From Acidobacteriota bacterium (GTDB taxonomy: Bacteria > Acidobacteriota > Terriglobia > UBA7540): a stretch of 13,856 bases of DNA. The notes below the pieces were generated by a model. That model worked only from the letters and a program-made list of their open reading frames with translations, was not told the origin of the DNA and did not search any database. Shown here piece by piece: positions 341-13,856 of this stretch (within the stretch, counting starts at the first letter, position 1; every line of letters starts with the position of its first letter). The position numbers and the translations under genes were made by a program. The stretch lies in assembly GCA_021780055.1 (NCBI GenBank), contig JAJXZM010000466.1, positions 1-13,856 of the forward strand, given 5' to 3'.

Positions 341-1483
341 TCAATAAGCGCCGTTACCAGAAATCATGGCGCGCGGCGTCGCGAATAGAATTTTCAGATC
401 GAGCCAGACCGACCACGATCTGGCGTATTGCAGGTCAAGGCGGACCATATCATTAAAGGTCGTCCGGCTGCGGCCCCGCACCTGCCATAGACCGGTGATG
501 CCCGGTTTAACTTCGAAAACCCGCCTCTGATGCCAGAAGTCATAGCATTCAACTTCATAAGGAATCGGAGGTCGCGGCCCAACCAGCGACATCTCACCTC
601 TGAGAACATTCAAGAACTGAGGCAATTCATCGAGACTGGTCTTCCGCAGAAACCTCCCGATTGGAGTCACGCGCGGGTCGTCCCGGATTTTATAAACGGG
701 GTCAGAGCCCAAAGAGTCATCTTCTCCCGCGATGAACCGTCTGATGTAATCCTTGTGCACATTCAGGTCGTTGTCCTGATACATGGTGCGCAATTTCAAA
801 AAAACAAATGGCACGCCGTGATAGCCCACCCGCAACTGACGGAAAAAGACCGGGCCTTTGGAAGAAAGCTTAATCAACAACGCCAGGACGCCCATCAGCG
901 GCGAGAGCAACAGGATGGCGGCGCCGCTTCCAATAATGTCGAGCCCCCGCTTTACGACTCGATGCAGTTTCTTGCCCGACTCCTGCTCCCGCAAATCACG
1001 GTAGAGGCCGGACCATTTTCCCCAGTTAGAAGCATTGTCGGGCTGCAGATACATTCGGATGTCAATTCGTTCGAATTCGTCGTTTTCAAGACGCGCGGAG
1101 AGTGCCGACTTAACCTTTGCATAGATGATATCGCTTACAGGCACCGGTCCTTCCGGGTTGACCTCGACAAAGATGACTCCGAGAACAGCACCCTGCAAAT
1201 ACCAACCCCTGATGTCCGAGTCTCGCGAGGCAGAGCATACCGAAGCCCAGACCTTTTCGATCATGTTTCGCGTGTTACCGTTCAGCAGGACATTTCGCAG
1301 GTCAAGAAGCATCAGGAGAAAAGGTTTACGAGACCGCTCTGCCCTTCTCCGCTCCAGGCAAAGAAGTTCCCCAAATTGCTTTTCGCCCGGGATTGCAGCG
1401 TTATCCCTATCCGGAACAACCGCCGGCAATGATGACGTCTCGGCTCCCCAATTCAATTGACTGCGTGTGGCACGAAGTGGCAT
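341..1483 (-). CDS. Polyprenyl-phosphate sugar-1-phosphate transferase (initiating PGT) with GGDEF-like N-terminus
   Basis: A 380-aa protein that should start exopolysaccharide synthesis by moving a sugar-1-phosphate from a UDP-sugar to undecaprenyl phosphate at the inner membrane. The C-terminal half (about residues 175-380) is a complete bacterial sugar transferase domain. It has KRGLDI at 178-183, a hydrophobic re-entrant/membrane helix at about 185-206, PVFFRQLRVG, FLKLRTM, the catalytic Asp-Glu dyad in SLDELPQF (285-286), SLVGPRPP, and the terminal WQVRGRS and LDLKIL motifs. The N-terminus lacks the four transmembrane helices of WbaP-type enzymes. Residues about 50-145 instead resemble a degenerate GGDEF fold (LLMLLDL then SRDSDIRGWY). 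I chose ATG 1483 because AGGTG sits about 6 nt upstream; the frame is open a further 85 codons to 1738, but that extension does not look protein-like. It lies 419 bp after the Wzc-like gene. Confidence 0.9.
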   Translation of the reverse strand: MPLRATRSQLNWGAETSSLPAVVPDRDNAAIPGEKQFGELLCLERRRAERSRKPFLLMLLDLRNVLLNGNTRNMIEKVWASVCSASRDSDIRGWYLQGAVLGVIFVEVNPEGPVPVSDIIYAKVKSALSARLENDEFERIDIRMYLQPDNASNWGKWSGLYRDLREQESGKKLHRVVKRGLDIIGSGAAILLLSPLMGVLALLIKLSSKGPVFFRQLRVGYHGVPFVFLKLRTMYQDNDLNVHKDYIRRFIAGEDDSLGSDPVYKIRDDPRVTPIGRFLRKTSLDELPQFLNVLRGEMSLVGPRPPIPYEVECYDFWHQRRVFEVKPGITGLWQVRGRSRTTFNDMVRLDLQYARSWSVWLDLKILFATPRAMISGNGAY

Positions 1484-1902
1484 AAGATTCACCTGGTAAG
1501 AAGAGCTTCTACTGTCAGATCGAACACAAAATGGCGCCCACGTCCTGTGCCGGGCTGCAAGGCAACTTTCCTGGAACTTGCGGGTATTGCAAAAGCCTCC
1601 TTTCGTCAGCCCGCGGTTCCGTCCCGGCAATTCACAAAACCAACGGCATCTTTCGTTTTTGGTGTATAGCTCCGCCCTCTGAGCCACACCGCCCGTGGCC
1701 CCCAAACCAACCTTGGATTGGCATTCCGACTTCAGCAAACCAACGTCTTACCGGAAACCTTCCCGGCCTGCTTACAAACTTGCGGAAGCGGCAACAGCCG
1801 GTTTAACCAAGTCATTCCGGAATAGCTCGCTCTCCGCGAACAACCTCAAACTCGCAGAATCTGAACCCTTCTTTGCTCAGGCTGCCAGTCAAATCGCGCA
1901 GG
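1484..1902 (-). other. 419-bp intra-operon gap upstream of the sugar transferase
   Basis: No convincing gene is visible on either strand. The minus-strand frame of the sugar transferase stays open to 1738, but its translation is low-complexity, rich in Arg, Cys and Ser, and preceded by no good ribosome binding site. An AAGGAGG sequence on the minus strand near 1597-1603 has no well-spaced start codon. A small hairpin (GCCAC at 1683-1687 with GTGGC at 1695-1699) is not followed by a T run. The gap may hold a leader, an internal promoter or a decayed gene; I cannot tell which. Confidence 0.4.
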
Positions 1903-4326
1903 TCACCCTGCTATCCGTTTCTCATACGGAGCCCGGTCGGAATCCTCTTCGTTTGCCGTATTGCCGTATCCGTACGAGTCGTAACCGTAGTAGTACTCCA
2001 TCGACCGCACATCCATACTGTTCAAAACCACACCGACAACGCTGTTCAATTGCTTGCGCGCCCGGATGACAAATTCGCGCGGTGCCATCCCGCTTCGAAC
2101 CACCATGATGCTGCCGTCAACCAGGCCAGCCAGGATGCGGGCATCTATCAGGTTAGGCATGACCGCTGGTGAGTCGATGATGAGATAGTCGTATTCCTCA
2201 AGAAGCTGGCTGATCAGCAGCTTCATCCGCGAAGACGAAAGCAAGGCGACCGGATTCTTTGGCGAATGGCCAGCAGGTAATGTATCCAGCCCCGGAGAGA
2301 GACCGGGCAAAACACAGGGGGCCCACTCGCTCAAACCACTCAAGTAGCTTGACAGTCCGCGAATATTCCGGAAGCCGAGCGCTCGATGGACCGCAGGGCG
2401 CCGCATGTCGGCGTCCACAAGGATGACCCGGCTGCCCTGCTGGGCCAGCGCGATCGCGAGGTTCACCGACACCGTGGTTTTTCCCTCGCCAGGCTGGGAA
2501 CTCGTGACGACAATGCTCCGCAAGACTCGCTTCCGGCCAGCAGCTTCCAGCATCACAGAGCTTCCCAGGGACCTGAAGGCTTCCACCAGCGGTGAGTATT
2601 TTTGCTGGATCTGCTTGTCAATTCGATACCAAGGGCTCTCAGACTTTGTCATCTGCGATGTATCGAGTATGTCGGGAATCACCAGACCGTGGCCATTGCC
2701 GTTGTTGTGGTTCCCATCCGCAACCAGTTCCTTGAGAGAACCCACCGCCGGGATCATCGCCAAAGCAGGCAGACCCAGGAAACGGTCTACTTCTTCGACC
2801 GTCTTTAATGTGGTGTCAAAGTGGGCCCGCAGGAAAGCAATTCCGACTCCCAAGCCCAGCCCTAGAATCAGACCAAGGACCATGTTGAACAAAATCTTGG
2901 GCTTGACAGGCAGAAATTCCGGCACCGCATGGTCTATGACGTTTACATTGTTCGACTTGATCCGGGCCACCAAGCTGGCCTCTTTGACCTTCTGCAGGAT
3001 GTTCTCGTAAAGCTGGTTATCAGAGTCCGCATTCCGCTTCAAGATGTCGTACTGAGTGGACTTTTCTGCCACCTGATTAGCCGCGATCTTCTGTTGCTCG
3101 TAGGCCCGCGCCATAAGAGCTTCACGCCGGACAGATGCAAGGTAATCATTGGTGATGTTTGCGGCAGCTCTCTGTCGTTCACGGGCCAGAGTTTCTTCCG
3201 CCGCCGCAAGCTGCCTCTTCACCTGCTGAACCTTGGGATAGCTGTCAGTAAACGTCGAAGACAACTGCGCATACTGAGTTTTGAGGTCTGCCACATTCTT
3301 CGTTAGGTCCTGCAGAAGCTTATCCTGGAAAACGCCGGGGAGTGAACCGTAGTCTCCCTTCTGAATAAGGTTGTAGACCGATTCTTTCTGGTAGCGGTCG
3401 GCCTGCGCCGCAGTCCACTGGTCCTGGATTTGACGGAGCCGCTCATTGACAATATTTTGAGAGGTACCCGAATTGGTTTCCAAATAGAGCAGTCCATTTT
3501 GGCGCGCATAGCGTGTCATCCTCTGCTCTGACTTTTCTAATTCTGTTCGTGCTTCATGGATCTGCTTGGCCAGCATCTTTGTAAATTTGTCAGTAGACGC
3601 CTGGTGAAGCTGCAGATAATGGGAAACGACTGCATTAACCACACGGGCCGCCATGCGAGGGTCATTGCTCTCATAGCTGATCGCAACCAGCCGGCTGCTT
3701 CCGATACGTGAAACATTGAGGGTCGACTCAAAATTGTCCACCAAACGCTGGTAAGCCCCGGGACTCATCTGAGATTCGGGTGAGACGTTCGCCGCCAAGC
3801 CAGAGCCATCATCATTCGACTTCCTCTGGGCAGAAGAATCGTTGTTGTCAGAGCCTGCATACCAATGGACGAAGGCGTGCCATGCTCCGCTGAAAATACC
3901 CGAATGGGCAGACTTAGGCTGTTTCGCCAGAATGACTTCATTGATCACCTGTCGGGCTAGTGAATCGCTCTTGAGGATCCCAATCTCCGTCTCAACCTCT
4001 GTCATAACAACATTGTTGGGGGCCATGTTCCGAGTCTGTAACTGCTCGAGGCTCTCGATGTCCGGCGTAGCCTGCTTGATCTCGATGGTTGCCTGAGCTC
4101 GATAAACTGGCTTCATGAAGAGAGAAACAATCAAAGCAGCCAGCATCAGAGCGATTCCGGAAACAAGAACCGTGCGGTAGTTTTCCAGCAGTACACGCAC
4201 GACGTAGTTCAAATCTACATCAGCGTCAGGATCTGGCAAGCTCGGGCTTGCAACTGTCGCCGTAAGCTTTCTCGCCCTCGAAAGAACTCCCCCCTTGTAA
4301 AGTTCAATCTTGTTTTCTTCCGTCAT
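1903..4326 (-). CDS. Wzc-like polysaccharide co-polymerase / BY-family tyrosine autokinase
   Basis: An 807-aa inner-membrane protein that controls chain length and export of exopolysaccharide through tyrosine phosphorylation cycles, partnering with the Wza-like channel encoded upstream. Order of parts: N-terminal Wzz chain-length region with TM1 at about 53-73; a long periplasmic coiled-coil section (about 240-450, rich in Gln, Glu, Arg and Ala) ending in a GNVR-like segment; TM2 at about 478-499; then a cytoplasmic BY-kinase. The kinase has Walker A (SSQPGEGKTT, 609-618), Walker A' (VILVDADMRRP, 634-644) and Walker B (YLIIDSP, 714-720). The C-terminal tail holds a tyrosine cluster (EYYYGYDSYGYG, 777-788, six Tyr, with one more at 801), the autophosphorylation site typical of the family. 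It is a single-chain, proteobacterial-style arrangement and looks intact. Start ATG 4326 has GGAG about 8 nt upstream and lies 40 nt after the export gene. Confidence 0.96.
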   Translation of the reverse strand: MTEENKIELYKGGVLSRARKLTATVASPSLPDPDADVDLNYVVRVLLENYRTVLVSGIALMLAALIVSLFMKPVYRAQATIEIKQATPDIESLEQLQTRNMAPNNVVMTEVETEIGILKSDSLARQVINEVILAKQPKSAHSGIFSGAWHAFVHWYAGSDNNDSSAQRKSNDDGSGLAANVSPESQMSPGAYQRLVDNFESTLNVSRIGSSRLVAISYESNDPRMAARVVNAVVSHYLQLHQASTDKFTKMLAKQIHEARTELEKSEQRMTRYARQNGLLYLETNSGTSQNIVNERLRQIQDQWTAAQADRYQKESVYNLIQKGDYGSLPGVFQDKLLQDLTKNVADLKTQYAQLSSTFTDSYPKVQQVKRQLAAAEETLARERQRAAANITNDYLASVRREALMARAYEQQKIAANQVAEKSTQYDILKRNADSDNQLYENILQKVKEASLVARIKSNNVNVIDHAVPEFLPVKPKILFNMVLGLILGLGLGVGIAFLRAHFDTTLKTVEEVDRFLGLPALAMIPAVGSLKELVADGNHNNGNGHGLVIPDILDTSQMTKSESPWYRIDKQIQQKYSPLVEAFRSLGSSVMLEAAGRKRVLRSIVVTSSQPGEGKTTVSVNLAIALAQQGSRVILVDADMRRPAVHRALGFRNIRGLSSYLSGLSEWAPCVLPGLSPGLDTLPAGHSPKNPVALLSSSRMKLLISQLLEEYDYLIIDSPAVMPNLIDARILAGLVDGSIMVVRSGMAPREFVIRARKQLNSVVGVVLNSMDVRSMEYYYGYDSYGYGNTANEEDSDRAPYEKRIAG

Positions 4327-4366: not shown

Positions 4367-5494
4367 CTAAGGGAGCCCCCGCCAGATGATCCACTGGGTA
4401 AATGTCCTAAGTGCAGCCTTGCCGGTTGACCTCGCCCCGTTCTTGGGAATGAACAGGACGTCCTTTGGCTGGAGCACAAGATCAGGCGCCTTTCCGGCCA
4501 GAATCTCATTCAGCCGCACAGGCAGTTCGATTTGCTGCCCATTTTCTGCAACTCGAATAATTTTGGCTTGGCTCATGTGAGCATCCGGACCAATTCCCTG
4601 CCCCAGCGATATTGCCTGCAAAACGGTCATATGTTCGTTGTCCTGGATGGGAAACCCACCCGGCCGCATGACATCGCCGACAACGTAGACAATTCCAGCG
4701 GCCTTGACCTTGATAATGTCTCCCGGATAGACGGCGACGTTGTACTTGGAATCTCCCGAATCAAGCAGTCGTTTCAGGCTGATCTCAATTGTCTTCCCCT
4801 CTACCGTATTTGCGGAAGATGCGGACGACGAAGAGGCTGAAGTTCCGCCCTGGACGCCAGCCGCCGCAACGCCTTTCGCTCCAACCGTCGGTGTTTGGTT
4901 AGAAGCAAAGTCATCGCCAGCCCCCCTCATGACCAACACGGCATTTCCGGCATCGGGTGTGAGACCCTGGGCCATGGAGAGCATTTCAAGAAGCGTCTTG
5001 GTCCCGCGAATCTGAAAGACGCCGGGCGCCTTAACAGCCCCAAGCACGGAAACGCTGTGGCTCTGCATTTCAGTAACCGTAACAGTGACTTGTGGATCCT
5101 TCATGTAGGTGCGACGTAACAGGGCCTGCAAAACCAGGTCTAGTTCCCGCGGCGTCAGTCCGACGGCCTTGATAGTTCCCAGCAAAGGCAATGAAATGTT
5201 GCCATCTCCAGAGACCCGAACGGTCTGGCTCAGGTCCGGCGCGTCGAAAACGGTAACTTGCAACTCGTCGTTCGGACCGATGCGGTAATCGCCCGGCGAC
5301 GGGCTGTTGTTGGCATTGGTGACGGCCGAATGAACCAGTTGCTGAAGGCGGCGATTCCAGTCGTCGGTTGTTTCCATTTGCGTGTTGTTACCGGCTGTCA
5401 GAACAGTTTGGCTTGAAGGATCAGCGGTCTGGGCCGCAACCTTCACCACCCCGACGGCCACAAAAACCGAGAGACAAAGCCAAATTCGAGACAT
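4367..5494 (-). CDS. Wza-like polysaccharide export protein (Poly_export + SLBB)
   Basis: A 375-aa exported protein expected to form the periplasmic/outer-membrane channel for the polysaccharide together with the Wzc-like kinase. A Sec signal peptide is visible (MSRIWLCLSVFVAVGVV, likely cleavage after VAA at about 21). The Poly_export domain spans about 66-142 (PGDYRIGPNDELQVTVF; the DPQVTVTV strand). A first SLBB domain follows at about 146-190 (VSVLGAVKAPGVF) and a second at about 268-315 (VYVVGDVMRPGGF). Between them is a low-complexity Gly/Ser/Ala linker at about 195-232. There is no lipobox Cys, unlike E. coli Wza. The C-terminus ends in a short aromatic, amphipathic stretch (FTQWIIWRGLP), perhaps the membrane-anchoring helix. 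Start ATG 5494 is preferred because GGGAGG lies 6 nt upstream and it gives a normal signal peptide; in-frame ATGs at 5527 (GAGG about 5 nt upstream) and 5515 are alternatives. Confidence 0.93.
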   Translation of the reverse strand: MSRIWLCLSVFVAVGVVKVAAQTADPSSQTVLTAGNNTQMETTDDWNRRLQQLVHSAVTNANNSPSPGDYRIGPNDELQVTVFDAPDLSQTVRVSGDGNISLPLLGTIKAVGLTPRELDLVLQALLRRTYMKDPQVTVTVTEMQSHSVSVLGAVKAPGVFQIRGTKTLLEMLSMAQGLTPDAGNAVLVMRGAGDDFASNQTPTVGAKGVAAAGVQGGTSASSSSASSANTVEGKTIEISLKRLLDSGDSKYNVAVYPGDIIKVKAAGIVYVVGDVMRPGGFPIQDNEHMTVLQAISLGQGIGPDAHMSQAKIIRVAENGQQIELPVRLNEILAGKAPDLVLQPKDVLFIPKNGARSTGKAALRTFTQWIIWRGLP

Positions 5495-5566
5495 TTTCCG
5501 CCTCCCATCATGCATCGGGAAACTCATTAAAACCTCGGATATCGTTTCTTTTGTCGGAACTGCTTG

Positions 5567-6205
5567 CTACGCCCCCATTCGGAGTGGCGATAGCAGCTCA
5601 TTTCCCAAACCCCAACCTCTGGCCATTGGGGTCAAAGCACAGCGCGTGCCTGCTCTGGCTTGCGGCGCTGTAATCCGCTCAACGATGCCCGCATCAACTT
5701 CCGCCGCGATAGACCTCTCAAGCAGCGTTACAGATATGACCAGACGCGCTTGGCCCTTTTTCCTTACCAGAAACCCTTCCAACCCCCGGAGTGCACCGGA
5801 TTTCACCCGGACAAGGTCGCCACACTTCAGGAAGGGATGCGGCTCGACATTAATTTCGTTCTCAACTACGCTCCTCACAGCCTCGATTTCCTCTTCGGGG
5901 ATACCGGCGAGTTTCCCCGCACTGCATAACAGCCCATGAACTCCGGGCGTTGTCAGAACCGGGAGGCGGCGGTCAAGATCGCCCCGCAGGAATACGTAAC
6001 AGGTGAAAAGCGGCACTTCCACTTTCTTTACGCGGTCTCTCCATTGGCGGACTTCCGTATAGAGCGGGAGAAAAGTTTCAAACCCTTTATTGGCAAGCGT
6101 CCGCGCCACCAATCTCTCATGCTGATGGCGCGTATGAACGGCGTACCAGACCGAATCGGCTGATGCGATGTTGCCGTTTGCGAATGGAGTATTGAGAACT
6201 GACAT
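5567..6205 (-). CDS. NusG-paralogue transcription antiterminator (RfaH/UpxY/LoaP type)
   Basis: A 212-aa member of the specialised NusG family that binds RNA polymerase and lets it read through long polysaccharide operons. The NGN domain spans about 18-115 (VWYAVHTRHQHE, KGFETFLPLYTE, RVKKVEVPLFTCYVFLR). The KOW domain spans about 126-178 (CGDLVRVKSGALRGLEGFLVRKK, shown here as its conserved core GDLVRVKSG and LRGLEG). A basic/hydrophobic tail of about 30 residues follows and is not part of the usual fold. It sits at the head of the export genes, 72 bp before the Wza-like start, the usual place for UpxY-type regulators. ATG 6205 has AAAGGG 6 nt upstream; a TTG at 6223 overlapping the upstream stop as TTGA is the alternative and would couple translation to the AAA+ regulator. 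It is not housekeeping NusG: no secE or ribosomal protein genes are nearby. Confidence 0.93.
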   Translation of the reverse strand: MSVLNTPFANGNIASADSVWYAVHTRHQHERLVARTLANKGFETFLPLYTEVRQWRDRVKKVEVPLFTCYVFLRGDLDRRLPVLTTPGVHGLLCSAGKLAGIPEEEIEAVRSVVENEINVEPHPFLKCGDLVRVKSGALRGLEGFLVRKKGQARLVISVTLLERSIAAEVDAGIVERITAPQARAGTRCALTPMARGWGLGNELLSPLRMGA

Positions 6206-6219
6206 GCCTTGCCCTTTGT

Positions 6220-7296
6220 TCAAGCCACCCTTCGATCAGATTTCTGGCTGCTCACTCCTGACAGCTCAACGTCGTCCGCTGGCCGCTCCGGCAGCAATCC
6301 AGCCTCTTTGATCTTGTAAAGCAGGGCGCGATAGCTGATGTTCAAGGCGCGCGCCGTCTGCCTGCGGTTCCATTGGGTCTCTTGCAGGGTCTTCAGAATG
6401 ATCTTTCGCTCCAGCGCCTGGGTGGCCTCACGGGTTAATTGCTTTAACGAGACGGAACGCCGAGCGGGAAGCGCCGGCGCAACCGGACGCTGAAGCTGCG
6501 GTGAGCTACCAAGACCCTCGATTCCTTCGGCTCCCAGAACTACGTAACGCTTCATGACGTTTTCGAGCTCACGAATATTGCCGGGCCAGGCATGCTCCTG
6601 CAGGCGCCGGACCAGTTGCAGGCTGGGGGCCGGCGATTGGCAGCCGAATCTATCGCTGTAAACCTGCCAGAAATAGTAGGCGAGCTGAGGAATGTCCTCT
6701 TTGCGGTCGCGCAAAGGGGAAAGGCGCAGCCTGACCACGCTGAGCAAGGAATGAAGATCTTCGCGGAGCCTTCCTGCTGCCACATCCTGTTCCAAGTCCT
6801 GGGTGCTGGTGCCAATAACACGTAGCTCTACCGGGATATCCGCACCATCCATAGAAATTAAAGGCCTGGAACCTCGAATCAACTGTAGTAGCTCCAACTG
6901 GCGATCTTGCGAAACCCCTGAAACCTCTTCAACAAACAAGGTACACGGCGGACCCTCTAAACCTCCCTCGCAAGCAAGCTCATCCCGCGCACCGACGGAA
7001 GGCTCCTCCAAGCGAAAGGCCACATCATCATTCGCACGGCCATCCCGGAACTGGTGGCTTAGCTTAAGGAACGGCGCTTTGGCGCCTGGGCTGCATGAAT
7101 GGATGAATCGCGCAAGAGTTTCTTTCCCCGTCCCCTTTTCTCCGAGAATGACGATCGGCACGCCGGCACCGGCAACCTGCTCAACAATCTGCAGAAGTCC
7201 CCGCATCCCCTCGGACGCACCAAAGATCATTTCTTTGGGCGGAAGATCATGGCAAGAAACCGACTTGCCCTCAAGGATATTTGAAATTACTCCCAT
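6220..7296 (-). CDS. AAA+/Fis-type transcriptional regulator lacking GAFTGA (paralogue 1)
   Basis: A 358-aa enhancer-binding-protein-like regulator. The AAA+ domain begins at FGASEGM (about 25-31) with Walker A GEKGTGKE (52-59), a Walker B-like TLFVEE (119-124, Glu where Asp is usual), RLREDLHS (176-183) in the arginine-finger region and WPGNIREL (237-244). A Fis-like helix-turn-helix lies at about 300-331 (NRRQTARALNISYRALLYKIKE). The GAFTGA loop that contacts sigma-54 is absent; residues about 82-117 are unrelated. There is no receiver, GAF or PAS domain in front. GAFTGA-less relatives such as TyrR and Rhodobacter NtrC act on sigma-70 polymerase, so this may too. Start: ATG 7296 matches the N-terminal length of the neighbouring paralogue, but its AAGG lies very close. 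GTG 7371 is the alternative. The gene reaches the NusG-like gene with only 14 bp between its stop and ATG 6205, so they are likely co-transcribed. Confidence 0.88.
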   Translation of the reverse strand: MGVISNILEGKSVSCHDLPPKEMIFGASEGMRGLLQIVEQVAGAGVPIVILGEKGTGKETLARFIHSCSPGAKAPFLKLSHQFRDGRANDDVAFRLEEPSVGARDELACEGGLEGPPCTLFVEEVSGVSQDRQLELLQLIRGSRPLISMDGADIPVELRVIGTSTQDLEQDVAAGRLREDLHSLLSVVRLRLSPLRDRKEDIPQLAYYFWQVYSDRFGCQSPAPSLQLVRRLQEHAWPGNIRELENVMKRYVVLGAEGIEGLGSSPQLQRPVAPALPARRSVSLKQLTREATQALERKIILKTLQETQWNRRQTARALNISYRALLYKIKEAGLLPERPADDVELSGVSSQKSDRRVA

Positions 7297-7478
7297 ACCT
7301 TCTTCTCTTCTCGCTCTTCCCAAACTCACATCAGATCTCAAGGATTTCCGAACCCACCATCGGGCTGCCACTCACGACAATTCCTTGAAAACTGCGGGAG
7401 TATCAGGGATTTACCCTATGCAAAGTCTCTCCAACACAGTTCGTGAGGCAATCTCAGGAAACGTGTTCCCTCTTCTAC

Positions 7479-7496: not shown

Positions 7497-7770
7497 ATCA
7501 AACCGGCTTTTCGAGAACACGGAAGCCTCAGATCTTGAAACCAATACAGATTGTCTTTACAACAAGTTACAAGCCTCGCTCGCCAGGCATAATAGCCACT
7601 GTTTTGTGGAGTTCTGTGGGTTATTCCCCGTCGACCACGCAAACTCATTCGCGCATGAGAATTGTCTTGCACTTTGTTTCACCTCTAGGGAGTGTGCAAA
7701 CACTTCAAACCTCTAGACTGCGGACGCGGCGCCTCGCATGAAACCGGAACTAGCCGGTTCAACCGGAGCG

Positions 7771-7798
7771 AAAAACCTTGCAGGTACGGACAACCTGC
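7771..7798 (-). terminator. Possible rho-independent terminator after the orphan gene
   Basis: On the minus strand a 6-bp stem (GCAGGT / ACCTGC, 7-nt loop) is followed by AAGG and then five T. It lies about 170 nt downstream of the 134-aa gene and ahead of the candidate promoter for the next operon, which is the expected place. The stem is short and the T run is offset by 4 nt, so it would be weak at best. Confidence 0.3.
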
Positions 7799-7966
7799 CA
7801 GATTTGCAAACGTGCCGTGCGTATTCCTGAGAAAATGGAGCCCGGCAGATCGTCGAAACGAGAACTTTTCGTCGGGCAGCCAACTGGTTCCAACTCAGGG
7901 GAATTGAGGGTGTTGGAATAATCTGAATACGGAATGCCGCAGGGATTTGACGCCGCGCACAGGGTC

Positions 7967-8371
7967 TCACGCCTTGCCGGCCCGTATCTCTGCCACCCAT
8001 GGAGCCGGGGCTTTGACATGGAAAATGCGGATAGGTTCAGCTGCAAGGGCCGCGACTTCGTCCGCAAGTGAAATCTGCAGCATTTCGTCTGAAAGAAGCA
8101 ACTTGTCTCCGCCGTCATTCGAACAGATGAACAGGCCGTCTAGTCCTTCCGGAGAACCTACCTTTAAGCCGCTGTCTTTGTTGGACTTCATGAAATCGGA
8201 AACCTGATTGAGGCCGTTAGAGCCCTCGGACCTCACCTGTCGGGGACGGGTAATGAAAGCGTAGTAATCGGCATCTTTAACAGCATCTTCGGCTGCTCGC
8301 TTCTTTAATTCGGTCGCTTCCAGATACTCAAGATTTAGTATGCCGTGCTTGGGTTCAGTGTGGTTTTTCAA
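7967..8371 (-). CDS. 134-aa protein of unknown function, coupled to AAA+ regulator 2
   Basis: I do not recognise the family. The TTG start at 8371 overlaps the stop of the upstream regulator (TTGA), with GGGAG 8 nt before it, so translation is probably coupled. The protein begins (M)KNHTEPKHGILNLEYLEATE. It has an acidic/basic helical stretch (about 15-33) with DADYYAFITRPR, a middle part with repeated Gly/Ser turns, and an ordered-looking C-terminal half (LDGLFICSNDGGDKLLL, then ISLADEVAALAAEPIRIFHV). There is no signal peptide, transmembrane helix or Cys motif, so it is probably a cytoplasmic soluble protein. Coupling to a regulator that lacks its own sensory domain makes a partner or effector of that regulator plausible, but this is inference from position only. 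The frame is open upstream to 8488, but that part lies inside the regulator gene. Confidence 0.7.
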   Translation of the reverse strand: MKNHTEPKHGILNLEYLEATELKKRAAEDAVKDADYYAFITRPRQVRSEGSNGLNQVSDFMKSNKDSGLKVGSPEGLDGLFICSNDGGDKLLLSDEMLQISLADEVAALAAEPIRIFHVKAPAPWVAEIRAGKA

Positions 8372-9408
8372 TTTTGTTTCTCCCGATTCACGACGATTCG
8401 TTTTGGAGGCACGCCAGCCTCCTTGATTTTGCAGAGCAGAGTCCTGTAGCTGATATTCAGCACGCGCGCAGCCCGCTTTCGGTTCCAATGTGTTTCGCGC
8501 AGTGTCTTGAAAATGATCTTGCGTTCAACTTCCTGGGCTTCCCGCCGCGCCAACCCCTTGAGGGAAATGCGCGCGCCAGGAACCTCGCCGCCGGGCCGCG
8601 GGCTTAATCTTTCAGTCAACTCGTTAATGATCTTGTCTTCGGATCCCAAAAGCACATAGCGCCTCATTACATTGGCAAGTTCCTGGATGTTGCCCGGCCA
8701 ATCGTGCTCCCGAAGGGCGGCAAGCAGAGGATCGGGAGGTGCTGGCGTATCCAAATCAAACTCAGCTTGAAAGGACTTCCAGAAGTACTGCGCCCATCCC
8801 GGAATGTCCTCTCGCCGCGCGCGCAAAGGCGGCAGGTACAGGGTGACAATGTTGATGGAATAAAAAAGGTCTTCGCGGAAATTCCCCAGGCTCATTTCAT
8901 GCTCAATGTCATGCTTCGTGCTGCAGATCGTGCGAAACAGAGGGGAACAGTATTCCGAGGGTCCCGTCCCGGCTGAATTGTCATCATGCAGCAGGTGCAT
9001 CAGGTTCCGTTGAAATGTGAAACTCAGTTCAGCCACTTCATCAAAGTAAAGCGTTCCGATACAACCGGGCCTACCGGAATCCCCTGGCCGGGAGTGGCCA
9101 TTGCCGTTGGCGCCGCCGGCCTCATATTTGGGAACCACAAAACTGGCGCTTTTTCGCCATCCGACCCTGCCCGCAGGAGTCACCCTGTGAAACGGTGTAT
9201 TCTCCCCGGGATATCTCTTGTGAATGAGCCTGGCTAAGAACTCTTTGCCAGTCCCGGCCTCTCCCCGGATCAGGACAGGAGCGTCGGTACAAGCCACTTT
9301 TTCAAGCTTGTTCCGGACTTCGCCCATAGCGTCTGAGGAACCAAATACCACCTCGTCGGGAGGCAGTATTCCATAACGAGTTGTAACAGCCGCAAAAGCT
9401 CCGGCCAT
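8368..9408 (-). CDS. AAA+/Fis-type transcriptional regulator lacking GAFTGA (paralogue 2)
   Basis: A 346-aa paralogue of the regulator at 6220-7296, with the same architecture: no N-terminal sensory domain, AAA+ from PPDEVVFGSSDAM, Walker A GEAGTGKE (about 49-56), Walker B TLYFDE (about 119-124, intact Asp-Glu), NFREDLFY in the arginine-finger region (about 176-183), DWPGNIQEL, and a C-terminal Fis-like helix-turn-helix (NRKRAARVLNISYRTLLCKIKE). The GAFTGA stretch is replaced by a Gly/Asn-rich insert (about 96-115), so classical sigma-54 activation is not expected. The HTHs of the two paralogues are close to identical in the recognition-helix region (LNISYR), suggesting overlapping DNA targets. 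ATG 9408 has AGAGG 8 nt upstream; GTG 9414 is only 2 nt from it and is less likely. It is the first gene of the minus-strand block and is coupled to the 134-aa gene downstream. Confidence 0.88.
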   Translation of the reverse strand: MAGAFAAVTTRYGILPPDEVVFGSSDAMGEVRNKLEKVACTDAPVLIRGEAGTGKEFLARLIHKRYPGENTPFHRVTPAGRVGWRKSASFVVPKYEAGGANGNGHSRPGDSGRPGCIGTLYFDEVAELSFTFQRNLMHLLHDDNSAGTGPSEYCSPLFRTICSTKHDIEHEMSLGNFREDLFYSINIVTLYLPPLRARREDIPGWAQYFWKSFQAEFDLDTPAPPDPLLAALREHDWPGNIQELANVMRRYVLLGSEDKIINELTERLSPRPGGEVPGARISLKGLARREAQEVERKIIFKTLRETHWNRKRAARVLNISYRTLLCKIKEAGVPPKRIVVNREKQN

Positions 9409-10094
9409 CTGCACTACCTCTGAATGGCACTGACCGGCAACGCGACGTGCACATCACCTTCCAAACGGGGAGTGGCCTGACGAGCCAGATTTACAAGTGG
9501 ACATGATCGCCCTGTAACGGCAAGGACGTGAATAGTTTGCGAGCTTCGCACGACCCTGCTTTAATTATGATCTGGCAACGCGAAAGGTATCTGGAATGCG
9601 CGCAAATCAATTCCGTTTGCGGAAATGTTTTGCAGATTGCGCCAGCAACTTTCCAGCGTGGCAATTCTCTTTTTAGGACGCGGCAAGGCAGGCCAGAACA
9701 AGTGGGATTTGCCCAGGAACCAACCGGGAGTTTCGCCCTGTTCTACGATGAGGATGCTCGTGATTCCCGGCATTGGGACCCCAAGGAGCCGACCGATCAA
9801 AAGCATTTGACACGTTGCCCCATAAAGCGCAAAACTCTAAACGATAAAATAACGGTGGGGGTTTGGTTGGCTATCGTTCATTGTGTTCGCATTTCGCCGG
9901 GGTGCTGAATTGCTCAACACCATGCAGTCGGGCGAACCGACCGTAAGGTAGCCTGATGACACCGGAGGGGACTGGTATTTTGACATTCCCTTACTCAAAC
10001 CCGGGTGCAGGTTTACAAGACTTCACGGCTGCATTGCTATGGGACATGCCATGGTCAGAATGAAAAGTACATACAAACAAGGAGGGTATTCCCT
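9409..10094. other. 686-bp divergent intergenic region between the EPS and Rsb blocks
   Basis: No convincing gene is seen; the open frames here (for example about 9528-9908 plus and 9561-9806 minus) have no family resemblance or good ribosome binding site. Apart from the -24/-12-like element at 9447-9464 it must hold the promoter of the plus-strand rsb operon, which I could not identify: TTGACA occurs at 9807-9812 and 9980-9985, but neither has a -10 box at proper spacing. Small inverted repeats are present (CGCAAA 9601-9606 with TTTGCG 9616-9621; AGAACA 9695-9700 with TGTTCT 9739-9744). Confidence 0.5.
9447..9464 (-). promoter_or_regulatory. Candidate sigma-54 (-24/-12) promoter upstream of AAA+ regulator 2
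   Basis: The minus strand reads TTGGAAGGTGATGTGCA: GG (complement of 9461-9462), exactly 10 nt, then GC (complement of 9449-9450). Mismatches to TTGGCACG-N4-TTGCW are C to A and C to G in the -24 block and T to G in the -12 block. Transcription would start near 9437, giving a leader of about 29 nt that contains the AGAGG ribosome binding site. The spacing to the gene is good; the motif itself is moderate. Confidence 0.4.
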
Positions 10095-10997
10095 ATGTCT
10101 GCAGCCAGAAAAGTGACCCCCCGTCCCGGTGCTCAAGGCGGGGCCGCCGATGTTTTTCCAGAACTCGTTGCCCACCTACGCAAAAACAGGACCCGCCTCC
10201 GGGAGGAGTGGGCCCGCCGCATCACCGAAGCTCGCATGTTGACGGCGATGACCAATGAGGAGATCATCACCGAAACCACATCCATTTATGACAATTACAT
10301 CAACGTCCTGGAAACAGGTGACGTTGAGGCCATGGAAGCCTACGCACGGAATCTTTCGGAAAGGATCATCCCCCGCGGTGTGGAAACGGATGAAATTATT
10401 GGGATCGTTCTTCTCCTGCGGGACGTGCTGCTGAGGTCCCTTTTCGAACTAAGCGAGTCCAGTTTGGCGCTGCTCAGCCGCATGCTGGATGCTTTTGAGC
10501 CTGCCGCACGACGGATCACGGTGACGGTTGCCGCCGGATTTGTGCACGAACGCGAAAGGATCATTCGCCAGCAGCAGGACGCCATCCGGGAGCTTTCCAC
10601 ACCGGTGTTGCCCGTACGCGAAGGGCTCCTCATCCTGCCCATCGTCGGCGTCATCGATCCGCAGCGCGCGCGCCAGCTAACGCAACAACTTCTGCGTGGC
10701 ATCCGGGCCAATAGAGCCAAGGTTGTGGTCATCGACATTACGGGTGTACCCTCCATCAACTCGACTGTCGCCAACCATCTGGTTCTGACGGTGGAAGCAG
10801 CGCGGCTGCTGGGGGCAACGGCGATCGTTACAGGCCTCTCGCCCGAGATTGCGCAAACGCTGGTTACGATCGGGGTTGATCTATCCAAGATGAACACCGT
10901 TTGCGACCTGCGGGAAGGAATTGAAGAGGCTGACAGAACCCTGGGCTTTAAAGTGACGCGGCTGGACGGTCCCTTTGAACAGGAGAGAGGCAGGTAA
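10095..10997 (+). CDS. rsbR: RsbR-like stressosome scaffold/sensor (RsbRD_N + STAS)
   Basis: A 300-aa stressosome protein expected to co-assemble with RsbS, sequester RsbT and release it on stress. The N-terminal all-helical domain (about 20-155) is of the RsbRD_N type (FPELVAHLRKNRTRLREEW, with a downstream RGVETDEIIGIVLLLRDVLL-like segment) rather than the non-haem globin fold of Bacillus RsbR. A linker helix (HERERIIRQQQDAIRELSTPVLPV) leads into a C-terminal STAS domain (about 165-285; DITGVPSINSTVANHL, GLSPEIAQTLVTIGVDL). The phosphoacceptor position usually read as Asp-Thr is Asn-Ser-Thr here (Ser223/Thr224), and Thr255 is a second candidate. The start is ATG 10095 with AGGAGG 9 nt upstream; the frame is open further upstream but the ribosome binding site decides. 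It is the first gene of the operon and the rsbS start follows 3 nt after its stop. Confidence 0.93.
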   Translation: MSAARKVTPRPGAQGGAADVFPELVAHLRKNRTRLREEWARRITEARMLTAMTNEEIITETTSIYDNYINVLETGDVEAMEAYARNLSERIIPRGVETDEIIGIVLLLRDVLLRSLFELSESSLALLSRMLDAFEPAARRITVTVAAGFVHERERIIRQQQDAIRELSTPVLPVREGLLILPIVGVIDPQRARQLTQQLLRGIRANRAKVVVIDITGVPSINSTVANHLVLTVEAARLLGATAIVTGLSPEIAQTLVTIGVDLSKMNTVCDLREGIEEADRTLGFKVTRLDGPFEQERGR

Positions 10998-11000
10998 ACT

Positions 11001-11381
11001 TTGCAGGTTCCAATTCTAAAGCAAGGGCCATACCTGATTGCATCAGTGCAGGCTGCCTTGAGGGATGCCGACCTGATCGTGCTTCGCGACGCACTGACGG
11101 AACAGGTTGGAACCTACCGCTCCCGGGGCGTGATCGTCGATGTCACAGCGATGGACGTGCTCGACTCATTCGCCTGCCGGACCCTTAGTGAAATCGCCAG
11201 CATGATCAGGTTGCGTGGGGCACAGACGGTAATCGTCGGCATTCAACCCGAAGTCGCTTTTTCTATGGTCCAACTTGGGCTCAAGCTGGAAGGTGTTGCA
11301 ACCGTGCTGGACCTGGAAGAAGGTCTCAAGTACATGGAACGCAGCACGAAACGAATCAACCATGGCCGTTACGGGAAATGA
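11001..11381 (+). CDS. rsbS: RsbS-like single-STAS stressosome protein
   Basis: A 126-aa stand-alone STAS domain, the core stressosome subunit that holds RsbT until it is phosphorylated. The conserved VDVTAMDVLDSFACRTLSEI contains the acceptor Ser56 in DSF (equivalent to Bacillus RsbS Ser59), followed by the family signature GIQPEVAFSMVQLGL and VLDLEEGL. Length matches the family. The start is a TTG at 11001, 3 nt after the rsbR stop, with CAGG about 6 nt upstream, so expression is probably coupled to rsbR. The 3' end overlaps rsbT by 20 nt. Confidence 0.94.
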   Translation: MQVPILKQGPYLIASVQAALRDADLIVLRDALTEQVGTYRSRGVIVDVTAMDVLDSFACRTLSEIASMIRLRGAQTVIVGIQPEVAFSMVQLGLKLEGVATVLDLEEGLKYMERSTKRINHGRYGK

Positions 11382-11772
11382 AGTTCGAGTATTGATTAAG
11401 TCCGATGAAGATATCCTTGCGGCCCGCCAAGAAGGGCGCGAACTGGGCGTCCGCCTGGGCTTTGAGCCCTCGGATCTTGCTGTGATCGCGACCTCGATCT
11501 CAGAATTGGCGCGAAATCTCCTGCTTTACGCAAAAAACGGAAGCATCATTTGCTGGGTTATCAACAAGGAGCCCAGGAAAGGCATCGTTATCCAAGCCGA
11601 AGATGAAGGCCCTGGTATACCGGATGTCGAAGCCGTGCTTAAGGACGGCTACTCCACTTCCGGCGGGCTGGGACTCGGCTTGCCAGGTGTCCGGCGAATG
11701 ATGGACGAGTTCGCCATCGTTTCCCACAAGGGACGTGGGACAACCGTAACCGCCATCAAGTGGAAGGAATGA
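11362..11772 (+). CDS. rsbT: RsbT-like serine/threonine kinase (switch protein)
   Basis: A 136-aa GHKL-fold kinase that phosphorylates RsbR and RsbS, leaves the stressosome and then activates a downstream partner bearing an RsbU_N-type domain. Visible ATP-site motifs are the N box (SELARNLLLYA, Glu48 and Asn52), G1 (EDEGPGI, Asp81 to Gly85) and G2 (GGLGLGL, 101-107). Family length is normal. The start is ATG 11362, inside the end of rsbS; no strong ribosome binding site precedes it, so translation likely depends on ribosomes finishing rsbS. Its stop overlaps the next start as ATGA at 11769-11772. Confidence 0.94.
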   Translation: MAVTGNEVRVLIKSDEDILAARQEGRELGVRLGFEPSDLAVIATSISELARNLLLYAKNGSIICWVINKEPRKGIVIQAEDEGPGIPDVEAVLKDGYSTSGGLGLGLPGVRRMMDEFAIVSHKGRGTTVTAIKWKE

Positions 11773-12377
11773 ATCGAGGCTTTGTCGAGTGGGGTGTGGC
11801 CGGCAGGCAGGTGCAGGGTGAAACCCTGTCTGGGGATCTGCATCTGGTCAAGCAGCATGAGAATGAGGTCCTGATTGCAGTCGCAGACGGACTTGGGCAC
11901 GGCAAGGCGGCTGCCGAGGCTGCAACGCTCGCGCTGAGCACCGTCGACGAGCATTCGGGCGAGCCACTCGTCAGGATCCTCGAACATTGCAGCTACAAGT
12001 TGCGCAGTACAAGGGGAGTCGTGATGAGCGTGGCTCTTCTCGATGGGGTGAAGGATTCAATGGAATGGCTGGGCGTAGGGAATGTTGCAGGCCTGCTGAT
12101 ACGCTCAGGGGCCGATGGGAATCGCGTGTACGAGTCTTTGTTATCATCCCAGGGAGTTGTCGGCATTCACTTTCCTCCGTTGCGCGCCACGGCGTTGAGG
12201 GTCGCCCCCGGAGACACGATAGTTCTGGCAACGGACGGCATCCGGCGCGGCTTCGAAGACGGCATGGTTCTGTTCGACGGAGCCGAAAAGACCGCGCAAG
12301 CCATCCTTTCGCGCGACGGGCTGGAGACAGATGACGCACTCGTGGTTGTTGCCACTTATCAAGGGAGACCGCGATGA
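11769..12377 (+). CDS. RsbX-like PP2C/SpoIIE-family serine phosphatase
   Basis: A 202-aa single-domain phosphatase expected to reset the stressosome by removing phosphates from RsbR and RsbS. The metal-binding acidic residues of the family are visible: Asp23 (SGDLH), Asp40-Gly41 (VADGLGHGKAA), Asp156-Gly157 (LATDGIRRG) and Asp189 (TDDALVVV), with GVGNV at 102-106. There is no N-terminal RsbU-type partner-binding domain, which fits RsbX rather than RsbU. ATG 11769 overlaps the rsbT stop as ATGA; GTG 11760 is an alternative in the same frame, and GGAAGG immediately precedes ATG 11769. The 3' end overlaps the histidine kinase start (ATGA at 12374-12377). Confidence 0.92.
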   Translation: MNRGFVEWGVAGRQVQGETLSGDLHLVKQHENEVLIAVADGLGHGKAAAEAATLALSTVDEHSGEPLVRILEHCSYKLRSTRGVVMSVALLDGVKDSMEWLGVGNVAGLLIRSGADGNRVYESLLSSQGVVGIHFPPLRATALRVAPGDTIVLATDGIRRGFEDGMVLFDGAEKTAQAILSRDGLETDDALVVVATYQGRPR

Positions 12378-13705
12378 AAACTGGCCAACGCGAACTCATG
12401 AACGCCTACACTTCGGCGTTGCGGACTTACCTGGAAAAAACAGACGAAGCGGCCCTGGAAGTTGCCTATGAACTGGGACGCCGCGGTCTGAGCCACGAGA
12501 CGAGCCTCATCGAAATGGTGACTCTCCATTACGATGCCTTTGGCCAGATCGTTTCAAGCATGCCCCAAATCCAGGATTTTTCCGATATGCTGAAGTCGTC
12601 GGCAAAATTCCTGATCGAAAGCCTTGCCCCCTATGAGATGACGATCAGCGGCTACCGGGAGACAAACGCCGCGCTGCAGGCCAGTGAGGAACGCTACCGT
12701 GAGTTGTTCGAAAACGCCAACGATATCGTTTTCACCACGGATTTTGAGGGCCGGCTCACATCAATCAACAGGGCCGGGGAAAGACTCACCGGGTATCGGC
12801 GGGATGAACCTCCGCCCATCCCTGTAAAAGTTCTGGCACTGGAATATTTCGAGCGCGCGGCGAGGATGTTCCAGGAACTGATCAGCGGCGGCGGCGGCGG
12901 GACCCAGGAATTTGAGATCATCACCAAAGACGGCCACCCGCTCATGGTGGAAGTTAGCGCCCGTCCGATTCTGAGCGACGGGAAGCCTGTCGGCGTGCAG
13001 GGCATTGCGCGCGACATCTCGGAGCGCAAGCGTGCTGAACAGGCCCTGCACCGGCTGAATGAAACGTTGGAAGAGCGTGCCCGGCACATTGCCCACGAAC
13101 TCCACGATGAGGCAAGCCAGCTCCTGGTGTCGGTCCATATCGCCATTGACGGATTGGCCCAGTCCCTCCCTGCTTCCGGCCAGCAGACCGTCACGGAGAT
13201 CAAGCAGTTGATTGAGCAGATTGAGTCTGAATTGCGACGCCTCTCCCATGAGTTGCGTCCGACCATCCTGGATGATCTGGGACTGATTCCGGCGCTCGAA
13301 TTCCTGGCGCAGGGCGTCTCAAAAAGATTCGGAATTCGGATCACCGTTGAAGGGGATACGGCCGGCCGCTTGCCCGCACAGGTGGAGGTCGCCCTCTATC
13401 GTATTACTCAGGAGGCTTTGAACAATATCACCAAACACTCGGGGGCCAATCACGTTGCCGTCCGGCTGCAAAAAGAGGACCACAAGATCCACTTGACTGT
13501 AACCGATGACGGCACCGGCTTCGATGTCCAGTCCGTTTTGGGGCAGAAAGGAAGGTCTGGACTGGGACTCATCGGAATAAGAGAACGGGTGATTCCTTTG
13601 CGCGGTGAATGTATAATTAATTCCAGTCCCGGCAAAGGCACGGAAATTTCAGTCTTGGTTCCTTCGGAGGGTAAAGATGCCTATACGTATCCTTCTGGCA
13701 GATGA
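12374..13705 (+). CDS. Histidine kinase with RsbU_N-like, PAS and HisKA_3/HATPase domains
   Basis: A 443-aa cytoplasmic sensor kinase without membrane segments. Residues about 8-88 (YTSALRTYL, AYELGRRGLS, LIEMVTLHYDAF, FLIESLAPYEMTISGY) match the helical N-terminal domain of RsbU, which binds RsbT. A PAS domain follows (about 105-222; ERYRELFENANDIVFTTDFEG, ending IARDISERKRAEQ). Then comes a HisKA_3 dimerisation domain with phospho-acceptor His244 (IAHELHDEASQLL), the SHELRPTILDDLGL segment, and an HATPase domain with QEALNN (346-351), DDGTGFD (378-384) and GLGLIGI (396-402). All residues needed for catalysis appear present. The start overlaps the phosphatase stop and has GGGAG 6 nt upstream; the 3' end overlaps the response regulator by 29 nt. 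The likely partner is that regulator, and the likely input is RsbT. Confidence 0.93.
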   Translation: MKTGQRELMNAYTSALRTYLEKTDEAALEVAYELGRRGLSHETSLIEMVTLHYDAFGQIVSSMPQIQDFSDMLKSSAKFLIESLAPYEMTISGYRETNAALQASEERYRELFENANDIVFTTDFEGRLTSINRAGERLTGYRRDEPPPIPVKVLALEYFERAARMFQELISGGGGGTQEFEIITKDGHPLMVEVSARPILSDGKPVGVQGIARDISERKRAEQALHRLNETLEERARHIAHELHDEASQLLVSVHIAIDGLAQSLPASGQQTVTEIKQLIEQIESELRRLSHELRPTILDDLGLIPALEFLAQGVSKRFGIRITVEGDTAGRLPAQVEVALYRITQEALNNITKHSGANHVAVRLQKEDHKIHLTVTDDGTGFDVQSVLGQKGRSGLGLIGIRERVIPLRGECIINSSPGKGTEISVLVPSEGKDAYTYPSGR

Positions 13706-13856
13706 TCACCAAATGGTCCGCCAGGGACTGAAGGCCCTCCTGGAACAGGAGGGTTTCAAGGTCGTCGGAGAAGCTTCCGATGGCCACCAGGCCACGCGAT
13801 TGGCCCAGGAATTGACGCCAGACCTCGCCGTTCTTGACCTGGCCATGCCTCTGATG
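13677..13856 (+). CDS. NarL/FixJ-type response regulator, N-terminal fragment
   Basis: The first 60 codons of a receiver domain, cut by the right edge. It begins MPIRILLADDHQMVRQGLKA with the acidic pair Asp9-Asp10 and has the phospho-acceptor Asp54 in VLDLAMP. The ADDHxxVRxGL start and the HisKA_3 partner kinase directly upstream both point to the NarL/FixJ family with a C-terminal LuxR-type helix-turn-helix, but that domain is outside the window. Start ATG 13677 has GGAGG 6 nt upstream and lies within the end of the kinase gene. Confidence 0.92.
   Translation, partial: MPIRILLADDHQMVRQGLKALLEQEGFKVVGEASDGHQATRLAQELTPDLAVLDLAMPLM

What the first reader, a model, noticed from the sequence alone, without database searches (positions are those of the whole stretch)
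12374..13856. RsbU_N-like domain fused to a histidine kinase: stressosome output rerouted into a two-component system
In Bacillus the RsbT released from the stressosome binds the N-terminal domain of the RsbU phosphatase. Here no RsbU, RsbV, RsbW or sigma-B gene follows rsbR-S-T-X in the window. Instead the RsbT-binding-type domain (residues about 8-88) heads a PAS/HisKA_3 kinase that overlaps a NarL-type response regulator gene. The implied pathway is stress, then RsbT, then kinase, then response regulator. The domain match is by eye from sequence pattern; the routing is inference.
Basis: partly seen in the sequence, partly recalled or inferred. Interest (0 to 1): 0.75.

Follow-up and report, generated by a model that had tools for sequence, protein, structure and literature searches.

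The report
Stressosome wired to a histidine kinase
A bacterial stress-sensing complex appears to pass its signal to a histidine kinase instead of the usual phosphatase, and in many relatives the genes sit beside those for making a protective slime coat, which suggests what the signal controls.

Summary
The 443-aa protein at 12374-13705 carries RsbU_N (PF08673, residues 11-89, E 1.6e-13, 51 bits, cut-off 25.5), then PAS, HisKA_3 and HATPase_c. Its gene overlaps rsbX and a NarL/LuxR-type regulator gene. No RsbU, RsbV, RsbW or sigma-B gene lies in the window or in 3.2 kb beyond the kinase in a 95%-identical locus, whose genome has no other PF08673 match. Of 43 genomes with an over-cut-off RsbU_N protein, 41 have rsbT just upstream and 38 a regulator just downstream; 42 of 43 proteins are visibly kinases. 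The general idea is in print for Proteobacteria (Heinz 2022; eLife 2025; passages read). I did not find in print the neighbour: exopolysaccharide genes within 10 kb in 17 of 43 such loci, against 0 of 45 RsbT loci without RsbU_N. RsbT residue evidence is mixed: G22 tracks the RsbT class, but R19/R23 are also kept in one control phylum. Best reading: stress, RsbT, kinase, regulator, probably exopolysaccharide. RsbT binding, kinase control and the regulator's target are inference.

The parts
10095..10997 (+). rsbR: RsbRD_N-like N-domain + STAS, stressosome sensor/scaffold
   Evidence: STAS 7.3e-13; RsbRD_N 1e-4, 23.4 bits vs cut-off 24.3
11001..11381 (+). rsbS: single STAS domain, stressosome scaffold
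   Evidence: STAS 1.1e-11
11362..11772 (+). rsbT: GHKL switch kinase, proposed messenger; overlaps rsbS by 20 bases
11769..12377 (+). rsbX: SpoIIE/PP2C feedback phosphatase; ATGA overlap with rsbT
12374..13705 (+). RsbU_N-PAS-HisKA_3-HATPase_c sensor histidine kinase, 443 aa; ATGA overlap with rsbX
12404..12640 (+). RsbU_N domain (residues 11-89), proposed RsbT dock
12578..12712 (+). helix 4 of RsbU_N running unbroken up to the PAS domain (residues 69-113 in the model)
12689..13018 (+). PAS domain (residues 106-215)
13103..13105 (+). His244, likely phospho-acceptor of the HisKA_3 H-box (motif recalled); invariant in 59 aligned sequences
13677..13856 (+). start of NarL/LuxR-type response regulator gene, cut by the window edge; overlaps the kinase gene by 29 bases
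   Evidence: whole copy in L001 11304-11936
341..1738 (-). sugar transferase (Bac_transf), exopolysaccharide cluster; start codon uncertain
1903..4326 (-). Wzc-like chain-length determinant / tyrosine autokinase
4367..5527 (-). Wza/EpsE-like polysaccharide export protein
5567..6223 (-). UpxY-family transcription antiterminator (120.3 bits, cut-off 100)
6220..7371 (-). sigma-54 AAA+ / Fis-HTH regulator; no receiver domain found
8368..9414 (-). second sigma-54 AAA+ / Fis-HTH regulator; no receiver domain found

Best explanation
This is a complete stressosome module (RsbR-RsbS-RsbT-RsbX) whose output has been moved from an RsbU phosphatase to a two-component system. Proposed working: stress sensed by RsbR makes RsbT phosphorylate RsbR/RsbS and leave the complex; free RsbT docks on the RsbU_N four-helix domain of the kinase and stiffens the helix that runs on to the PAS domain; this switches the HisKA_3/HATPase core; the kinase phosphorylates the NarL/LuxR-type regulator encoded by the overlapping gene; RsbX resets the stressosome. 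The regulator probably controls, among other things, the exopolysaccharide cluster next door (UpxY antiterminator, Wza, Wzc, sugar transferase). Shown here: domains, gene order, conservation, linkage. Inferred: RsbT binding, the sign of its effect (activation), phosphotransfer, and the exopolysaccharide target.
For: Domains. A kinase-derived profile finds only RsbU N-domain sequences in the PDB at E<=0.1. In 43 genomes with an over-cut-off RsbU_N protein: rsbT on the same strand just upstream in 41, R, S and T in 37, a regulator just downstream in 38. 42 of 43 proteins visibly have kinase domains; 1 is cut by a contig end; none was seen with a phosphatase domain after RsbU_N. One PF08673 match per genome in 8 of 8. 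RsbU E24, a published RsbT contact, is Glu in 151 of 159 aligned kinase rows, some near-copies. RsbT G22, between the published contacts R19 and R23, is Gly in 18 of 21 RsbTs beside RsbU_N against 1 of 21 without, repeated in a third phylum as 1 of 12 modules without RsbU_N, that one at a contig end. Linker from the FEM motif to the PAS start is 14 residues in 23 of 23 PAS-type sequences, window included; the models show one continuous helix. Exopolysaccharide genes (at least 2 of 4 kinds within 10 kb): 17 of 43 loci against 0 of 45 RsbT loci without RsbU_N (Fisher p 7e-7) or 0 of 31 counting only those with RsbS (p 3e-5); within the G008 phylum 10 of 18 against 0 of 12 such modules (p 0.002). 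Poly_export within 10 kb in 14 of 31 genomes, 0.39 expected.
Against: No binding or activity data. The RsbU contact Y28 is Gln or Glu in 123 of 159 kinase rows (Glu29 here) and I78 Ser or Thr in 119 (Ala85 here), so the interface is only partly conserved. R19 and R23 of RsbT are 21 of 21 beside RsbU_N against 16 and 14 of 21 without in two draws, but 12 of 12 and 12 of 12 in modules without RsbU_N in the third phylum, so they do not mark RsbU_N partners. G22 follows the RsbT tree (2 changes of label) and is also kept in 12 of 13 lone RsbTs with no RsbU_N nearby. Two of 43 genomes (G005/L005, G322/L156) have the kinase without rsbT nearby and no RsbT match at E<=0.001. Exopolysaccharide linkage is not seen in 26 of 43, including 7 of 7 Bacteroidetes-type loci; within the Acidobacteria-type draw alone the contrast is weak (5 of 16 against 0 of 16, p 0.043). 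None of these tests corrects for relatedness. Fold comparison ranks KaiA above RsbU.
Confidence: 0.67

Rival explanations
1. RsbU_N is here only a dimerisation or spacer domain; the kinase answers to its PAS ligand, and its place beside rsbRSTX reflects shared transcription, not RsbT control.
For: Y28 and I78 equivalents are not conserved. The fold is a common four-helix arrangement also seen in the KaiA C-domain. Two loci lack rsbT. R19/R23 of RsbT are no special mark of RsbU_N partners in one phylum.
Against: 41 of 43 linkage to rsbT; kinases without the PAS start motif still keep RsbU_N, at a constant distance from the H-box in 9 of 10; E24 kept in 151 of 159.
Confidence: 0.15
2. RsbT does act on the kinase, but by holding it inactive, or by phosphorylating it, rather than by an activating dock.
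For: Heinz 2022 proposes RsbT-dependent phosphorylation for downstream kinases that lack RsbU_N (passages). The sign of control cannot be read from sequence.
Against: The RsbU precedent is activation by docking and linker ordering, and the unbroken helix from RsbU_N to the PAS domain fits it.
Confidence: 0.2
3. A separate RsbU/RsbV/RsbW/sigma cascade elsewhere in the genome is the main stressosome output and this kinase is a side branch.
For: The window's own genome is not held. Related MAGs carry sigma-B/F/G-like matches, over cut-off in 1 of 8 (G003), and G001 has an RsbW-like hit about 0.8 kb from a sigma-like gene (C137).
Against: One PF08673 match per genome in 8 of 8, each the kinase. 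G001 has no SigBFG match over cut-off.
Confidence: 0.1

Closest known systems
RsbU_N-bearing histidine kinase in a stressosome operon ('NreB', MBI3545564.1, a gammaproteobacterium), eLife 2025 PMC12143880 (sections 8 and 18 and passages read)
   Same: RsbU N-domain joined to a histidine kinase; [quoted passage not shown]
   Different: From another phylum; the passages read name no exopolysaccharide link; I made no sequence comparison with it
rsbRSTX plus downstream modules with sensor-globin RsbR, Heinz 2022 PMC9237108 (passages read)
   Same: RSTX order, downstream HisKA/REC phosphorelays, some downstream proteins with RsbU_N
   Different: That survey took RsbRs with a globin sensor; here RsbR is RsbRD_N-like (just under cut-off). 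By that paper V. vulnificus D1 has no RsbU_N domain
B. subtilis RsbT-RsbU-RsbV-RsbW-sigma-B cascade
   Same: RsbR, S, T, X and the RsbU_N dock
   Different: Kinase core in place of the PP2C phosphatase; no RsbV, RsbW or sigma-B nearby
Moorella thermoacetica stressosome with RsbU_N-type diguanylate cyclase (Quin 2012, known only through PMC12143880 and PMC4976288)
   Same: RsbU N-domain moved to another output enzyme
   Different: Output is cyclic di-GMP, not phosphotransfer

Membership tests
RsbU_N domain (PF08673) | Profile match over curated cut-off | tested here: met
   51.1 bits, cut-off 25.5
RsbU_N domain (PF08673) | Sequence relation to solved RsbU N-domains | tested here: met
   Profile A3 finds only 4 RsbU sequences at E<=0.1, best 2.9e-8
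RsbU_N domain (PF08673) | Four-helix fold of RsbU | tested here: inconclusive
RsbU_N domain (PF08673) | Binds RsbT | not testable with these tools
   Only indirect and mixed: gene order and residue conservation
RsbU phosphatase | PP2C/SpoIIE catalytic domain | tested here: not met
   C-terminal part is HisKA_3 + HATPase_c
HisKA_3 (NarL-type) histidine kinase | HisKA_3 and HATPase_c over cut-off, conserved H-, N- and G-box residues | tested here: met
   H244, N351, D378, G380, G382 invariant in 59 sequences; box names recalled
Stressosome RSTX module | Consecutive RsbR, RsbS, RsbT, RsbX genes | tested here: met
   RsbR N-domain just under the RsbRD_N cut-off
Stressosome RSTX module | Assembly of a megadalton complex | not testable with these tools
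   none
sigma-B operon (rsbRSTUVW-sigB-rsbX) | rsbU, rsbV, rsbW, sigB beside rsbT | tested here: not met
   None among the window's genes or in 3.2 kb beyond the kinase in L001 (ORFs there read by eye except two scanned)

The most novel reading that the evidence does not exclude
In several little-studied phyla the stressosome is a dedicated stress-to-slime switch: RsbT docks on an RsbU_N histidine kinase, whose LuxR-type regulator turns on the adjoining UpxY/Wza/Wzc exopolysaccharide cluster, so that the general stress sensor governs capsule or biofilm matrix without any sigma factor.
Probability: 0.48. Interest if true: 0.7.

Novelty: new variant of a known kind. Interest (0 to 1): 0.52.

Why it matters
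If true, it shows that RsbU_N is a portable RsbT socket that can plug the stressosome into two-component signalling, and it gives a likely physiological output (exopolysaccharide) in lineages where no sigma-B gene lies beside the stressosome. It also makes the published 'exchangeable toolkit' idea directly testable with a compact, six-gene operon.

Tried and rejected
The heptad reading of the linker lengths was dropped: the first count gave 14 residues to the PAS start in 104 and 28 to the H-box in 7; the second, on 43 loci plus the window, gave 14 in 23 of 23 and 27 in 9 of 10 (33 in one). The two counts use differently placed anchors, and 38 of 164 sequences and 11 of 44 failed a motif, so only constancy within each class is claimed.

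The R19/R23 contrast of RsbT was given up as a mark of RsbU_N partners after the third phylum showed both kept in 12 of 12 modules without RsbU_N. The tree of RsbTs does not show independent origins, so G22 is a clue only; it is also kept in 12 of 13 lone RsbTs.

A Foldseek search with the whole kinase was filled by PAS/LOV and other kinases in the 50 rows shown and said nothing about RsbU_N; the domain was then modelled alone. A sigma-54 promoter scan of the window found no excess (6 sites, 8.1 expected).

Paper searches (listings only): 20 of 23 listed; 30 of 181; 7 of 7; 25 of 130; 1 of 1; 2 of 2; 15 of 26; 12 of 167. No title or abstract start in these capped listings ties an RsbU_N kinase or a stressosome operon to an exopolysaccharide cluster. 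Passages read: PMC12143880 (sections 8 and 18), PMC4976288, PMC9237108, PMC10014275, PMC5209427, PMC4260858 (it mentions V. vulnificus stressosome and exopolysaccharide in separate places). The 2017 and 2005 stressosome reviews are not held, nor are most papers of subscription journals, so absence from print is not shown.

Rows dropped before counts: G193 and G406 (below the PF08673 cut-off) and the second, borderline hit of G100 are not among the 43 genomes. L269 (G356) holds an RsbU_N protein by my own profile that PF08673 did not report; it has rsbT and no exopolysaccharide hit, and with it the count is 17 of 44; so the survey misses some. L219 (same cluster as L209), L170 (weak GHKL relative) and five rows at contig ends (L171, L176, L178, L183, L186) were left out of the 21 without RsbU_N; L217 has gaps there. 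Of the 20 control loci, 6 are shorter than 16 kb and one (L222) showed no RsbR/RsbS; of the 25, 9 are shorter than 15 kb and 13 are lone RsbTs without RsbR/RsbS. Controls were measured within 11 kb of RsbT, test loci within 10 kb of the kinase. The ANGP1-type phylum has no control. Poly_export background was taken for 31 genomes, not all 43: the 7 Bacteroidetes-type genomes with no linkage, and G005, G161, G216, G223 and G322, were not in it, so 14 of 31 is not the rate over all. The stop-to-stop frame of the G359 kinase also covers part of RsbX, ahead of RsbU_N.
Full report
WHAT IS THERE. The window holds, on the + strand, rsbR (10095-10997), rsbS (11001-11381), rsbT (11362-11772), rsbX (11769-12377), a sensor kinase (12374-13705) and the first 60 codons of a response regulator (13677-). 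rsbT/rsbX and rsbX/kinase overlap by ATGA and the kinase and regulator genes overlap by 29 bases, as expected for one co-translated operon (inference). Pfam gives RsbU_N at residues 11-89 of the kinase with 51.1 bits (cut-off 25.5), followed by PAS, HisKA_3 and HATPase_c, all over cut-off.

BEYOND THE EDGE AND ELSEWHERE IN THE GENOME. No whole genome is held for the window. The nearest locus found, L001, is an Acidobacteria MAG with a 95% identical kinase. There the regulator is complete (210 aa, REC + GerE) and is followed by a REC-only protein, a reverse-strand gene and an oxidoreductase-like gene, with no RsbU, RsbV, RsbW or sigma gene recognised in the 3.2 kb held beyond the kinase (all but the two receiver proteins judged by eye). 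In 8 of 8 related genomes the only PF08673 match at E<=0.001 is the kinase. SigBFG (TIGR02980) passes its cut-off in 1 of 8, G003, and not in G001.

HOW GENERAL IS IT? PF08673 was sought in four phyla, those of G001 (Acidobacteria by record title), G008 (Candidatus Rokuibacteriota), G007 (Bacteroidetes) and G003 (ANGP1): matches at E<=0.001 in 14 of 297, 18 of 95, 8 of 296 and 2 of 43 genomes. Together with three more genomes (G004, G005, G006) this gives 43 genomes with a match over cut-off. rsbT lies on the same strand just upstream in 41 of 43, all of R, S and T in 37, a PP2C-type RsbX in 37, a response regulator just downstream in 38. By the window's kinase core (39 proteins) or Pfam (3 more), 42 of 43 proteins are visibly histidine kinases; one is cut by a contig end; none was seen with a phosphatase domain after RsbU_N (in G359 the open frame also covers part of RsbX ahead of it). 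Of the 120 best homologues listed, 114 carry PF08673 (counted by eye). So in these draws RsbU_N is practically a kinase domain, tied to rsbT. The survey is not complete: my own profile found one more such locus that PF08673 did not report (L269/G356). Exceptions are L005/G005 and L156/G322, where no RsbT match was found at E<=0.001 either; the first is a MAG by its title, and both may be incomplete.

THE RsbT CONTACT. Published contacts are RsbU E24, Y28, I74, I78 and RsbT R19, R23, N24. In 159 aligned kinase rows E24 is Glu in 151 and the aligned I74 is mostly small or hydrophobic (I 47, A 38, V 37, L 12), but Y28 is Gln or Glu in 123 and I78 Ser or Thr in 119: the interface is partly kept, partly remodelled. 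In 42 RsbTs of such loci R19 and R23 are Arg in 41, with one gap, and N49 and D78 are invariant (numbering from a recalled B. subtilis sequence). RsbTs from loci without RsbU_N in the Acidobacteria- and Bacteroidetes-type draws keep R19 in 16 of 21 and R23 in 14 of 21 against 21 of 21 and 21 of 21, but in the G008 phylum modules without RsbU_N keep both in 12 of 12, so these arginines do not mark RsbU_N partners. The strongest difference over the positions compared is G22, between them: 18 of 21 against 1 of 21, and 1 of 12 in the G008 phylum, that one at a contig end. Against this: the two groups are nearly separate on the RsbT tree (2 changes of label), and 12 of 13 lone RsbTs with no RsbU_N nearby also have G22. 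So G22 marks an RsbT class that includes the RsbU_N partners; it does not prove docking.

LINKER. In 23 PAS-type sequences (window included) the distance from the FEM motif at the end of RsbU_N to the PAS start motif is 14 residues in all 23; in 10 without that motif the distance to the H-box is the same in 9; 11 of 44 sequences matched neither motif. Together with the unbroken helix this fits the mechanism shown for RsbU, where RsbT orders a flexible linker. That the same happens here is inference.

THE NEIGHBOUR. The left half of the window is an exopolysaccharide cluster on the - strand: sugar transferase, Wzc-like, Wza-like, a UpxY-family antiterminator (120.3 bits, cut-off 100) and two sigma-54 type regulators in which no receiver was found. 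The same kinds of gene recur beside the module elsewhere, often downstream and in the same direction: at least two of NusG-like, Wza, Wzc and sugar transferase within 10 kb in 17 of 43 loci (5 of 16 Acidobacteria-type, 10 of 18 G008 phylum, 2 of 2 G003 phylum, 0 of 7 G007 phylum). Controls, RsbT loci without RsbU_N: 0 of 20 from the Acidobacteria- and Bacteroidetes-type draws and 0 of 25 from the G008 phylum; together 17 of 43 against 0 of 45 (Fisher p 7e-7). Counting only controls with RsbS: 0 of 31 (p 3e-5), and within the G008 phylum 10 of 18 against 0 of 12 (p 0.002). Within the Acidobacteria-type draw alone the contrast is weak, 5 of 16 against 0 of 16 (p 0.043). Poly_export lies within 10 kb of the kinase in 14 of 31 genomes where 0.39 are expected from copy number and genome size; the 31 leave out the Bacteroidetes-type genomes, and no test here corrects for relatedness. 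In L005, which shows no rsbRST, the kinase still lies beside exopolysaccharide genes.

MECHANISM. Best reading: RsbR senses stress; RsbT leaves, docks on RsbU_N of the kinase, and changes its activity through the helix; the kinase phosphorylates the overlapping-gene regulator; the regulator acts on the neighbouring exopolysaccharide genes among others; the PAS domain adds a second input; RsbX resets. Shown: parts, order, conservation, linkage. Inferred: binding, sign, phosphotransfer, target.

WHAT IS KNOWN. Heinz 2022 (PMC9237108, passages) reports RSTX modules with globin RsbRs and eleven downstream types, including HisKA/REC relays, some with RsbU_N. [quoted passage not shown] So the fusion is a known kind. 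Not found in the capped listings of my searches are the members in these phyla, their near-exclusive use of RsbU_N on kinases, and the exopolysaccharide linkage.

VERDICT. Confirmed and sensible; a new variant of a published idea; the exopolysaccharide link is the part worth following.

Noticed in passing
L270, L272-L283 (G008 phylum); L176 (G001 contig C60) 6836-7405: Lone RsbTs of the same class (G22 in 12 of 13 in the G008 phylum) with no RsbR or RsbS detected in the stretch fetched, several in genomes that also have the RsbU_N kinase: extra inputs or decoys for it? Unexplained.
   Followed up: partly
L001 12262-12690; second receiver ORFs also follow in L003, L136, L137 and others: A second receiver protein follows the LuxR-type regulator; in L001 it is REC-only (142 aa).
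   Followed up: no
L005 7391-8971: An RsbU_N kinase and regulator beside exopolysaccharide genes but with no RsbRST upstream and no RsbT match in that MAG.
   Followed up: partly
L223, L226, L233-L236, L284-L292: Another class of RsbRST modules in these phyla has further RsbT-like ATPase domains in following ORFs and no RsbU_N.
   Followed up: no
G001 contig C137, 10798-12641: An RsbW-like ATPase lies about 0.8 kb from a sigma-B/F/G-like gene (112 bits, below cut-off).
   Followed up: no
window 7372-8367: About 1 kb without a convincing gene lies between the two sigma-54 type regulators; a similar gap is seen in L001 (5005-5998).
   Followed up: no
kinase residues 1-100: The modelled RsbU_N domain resembles the KaiA C-terminal domain at least as much as RsbU; I recall that structural classifications already group the two.
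   Followed up: no
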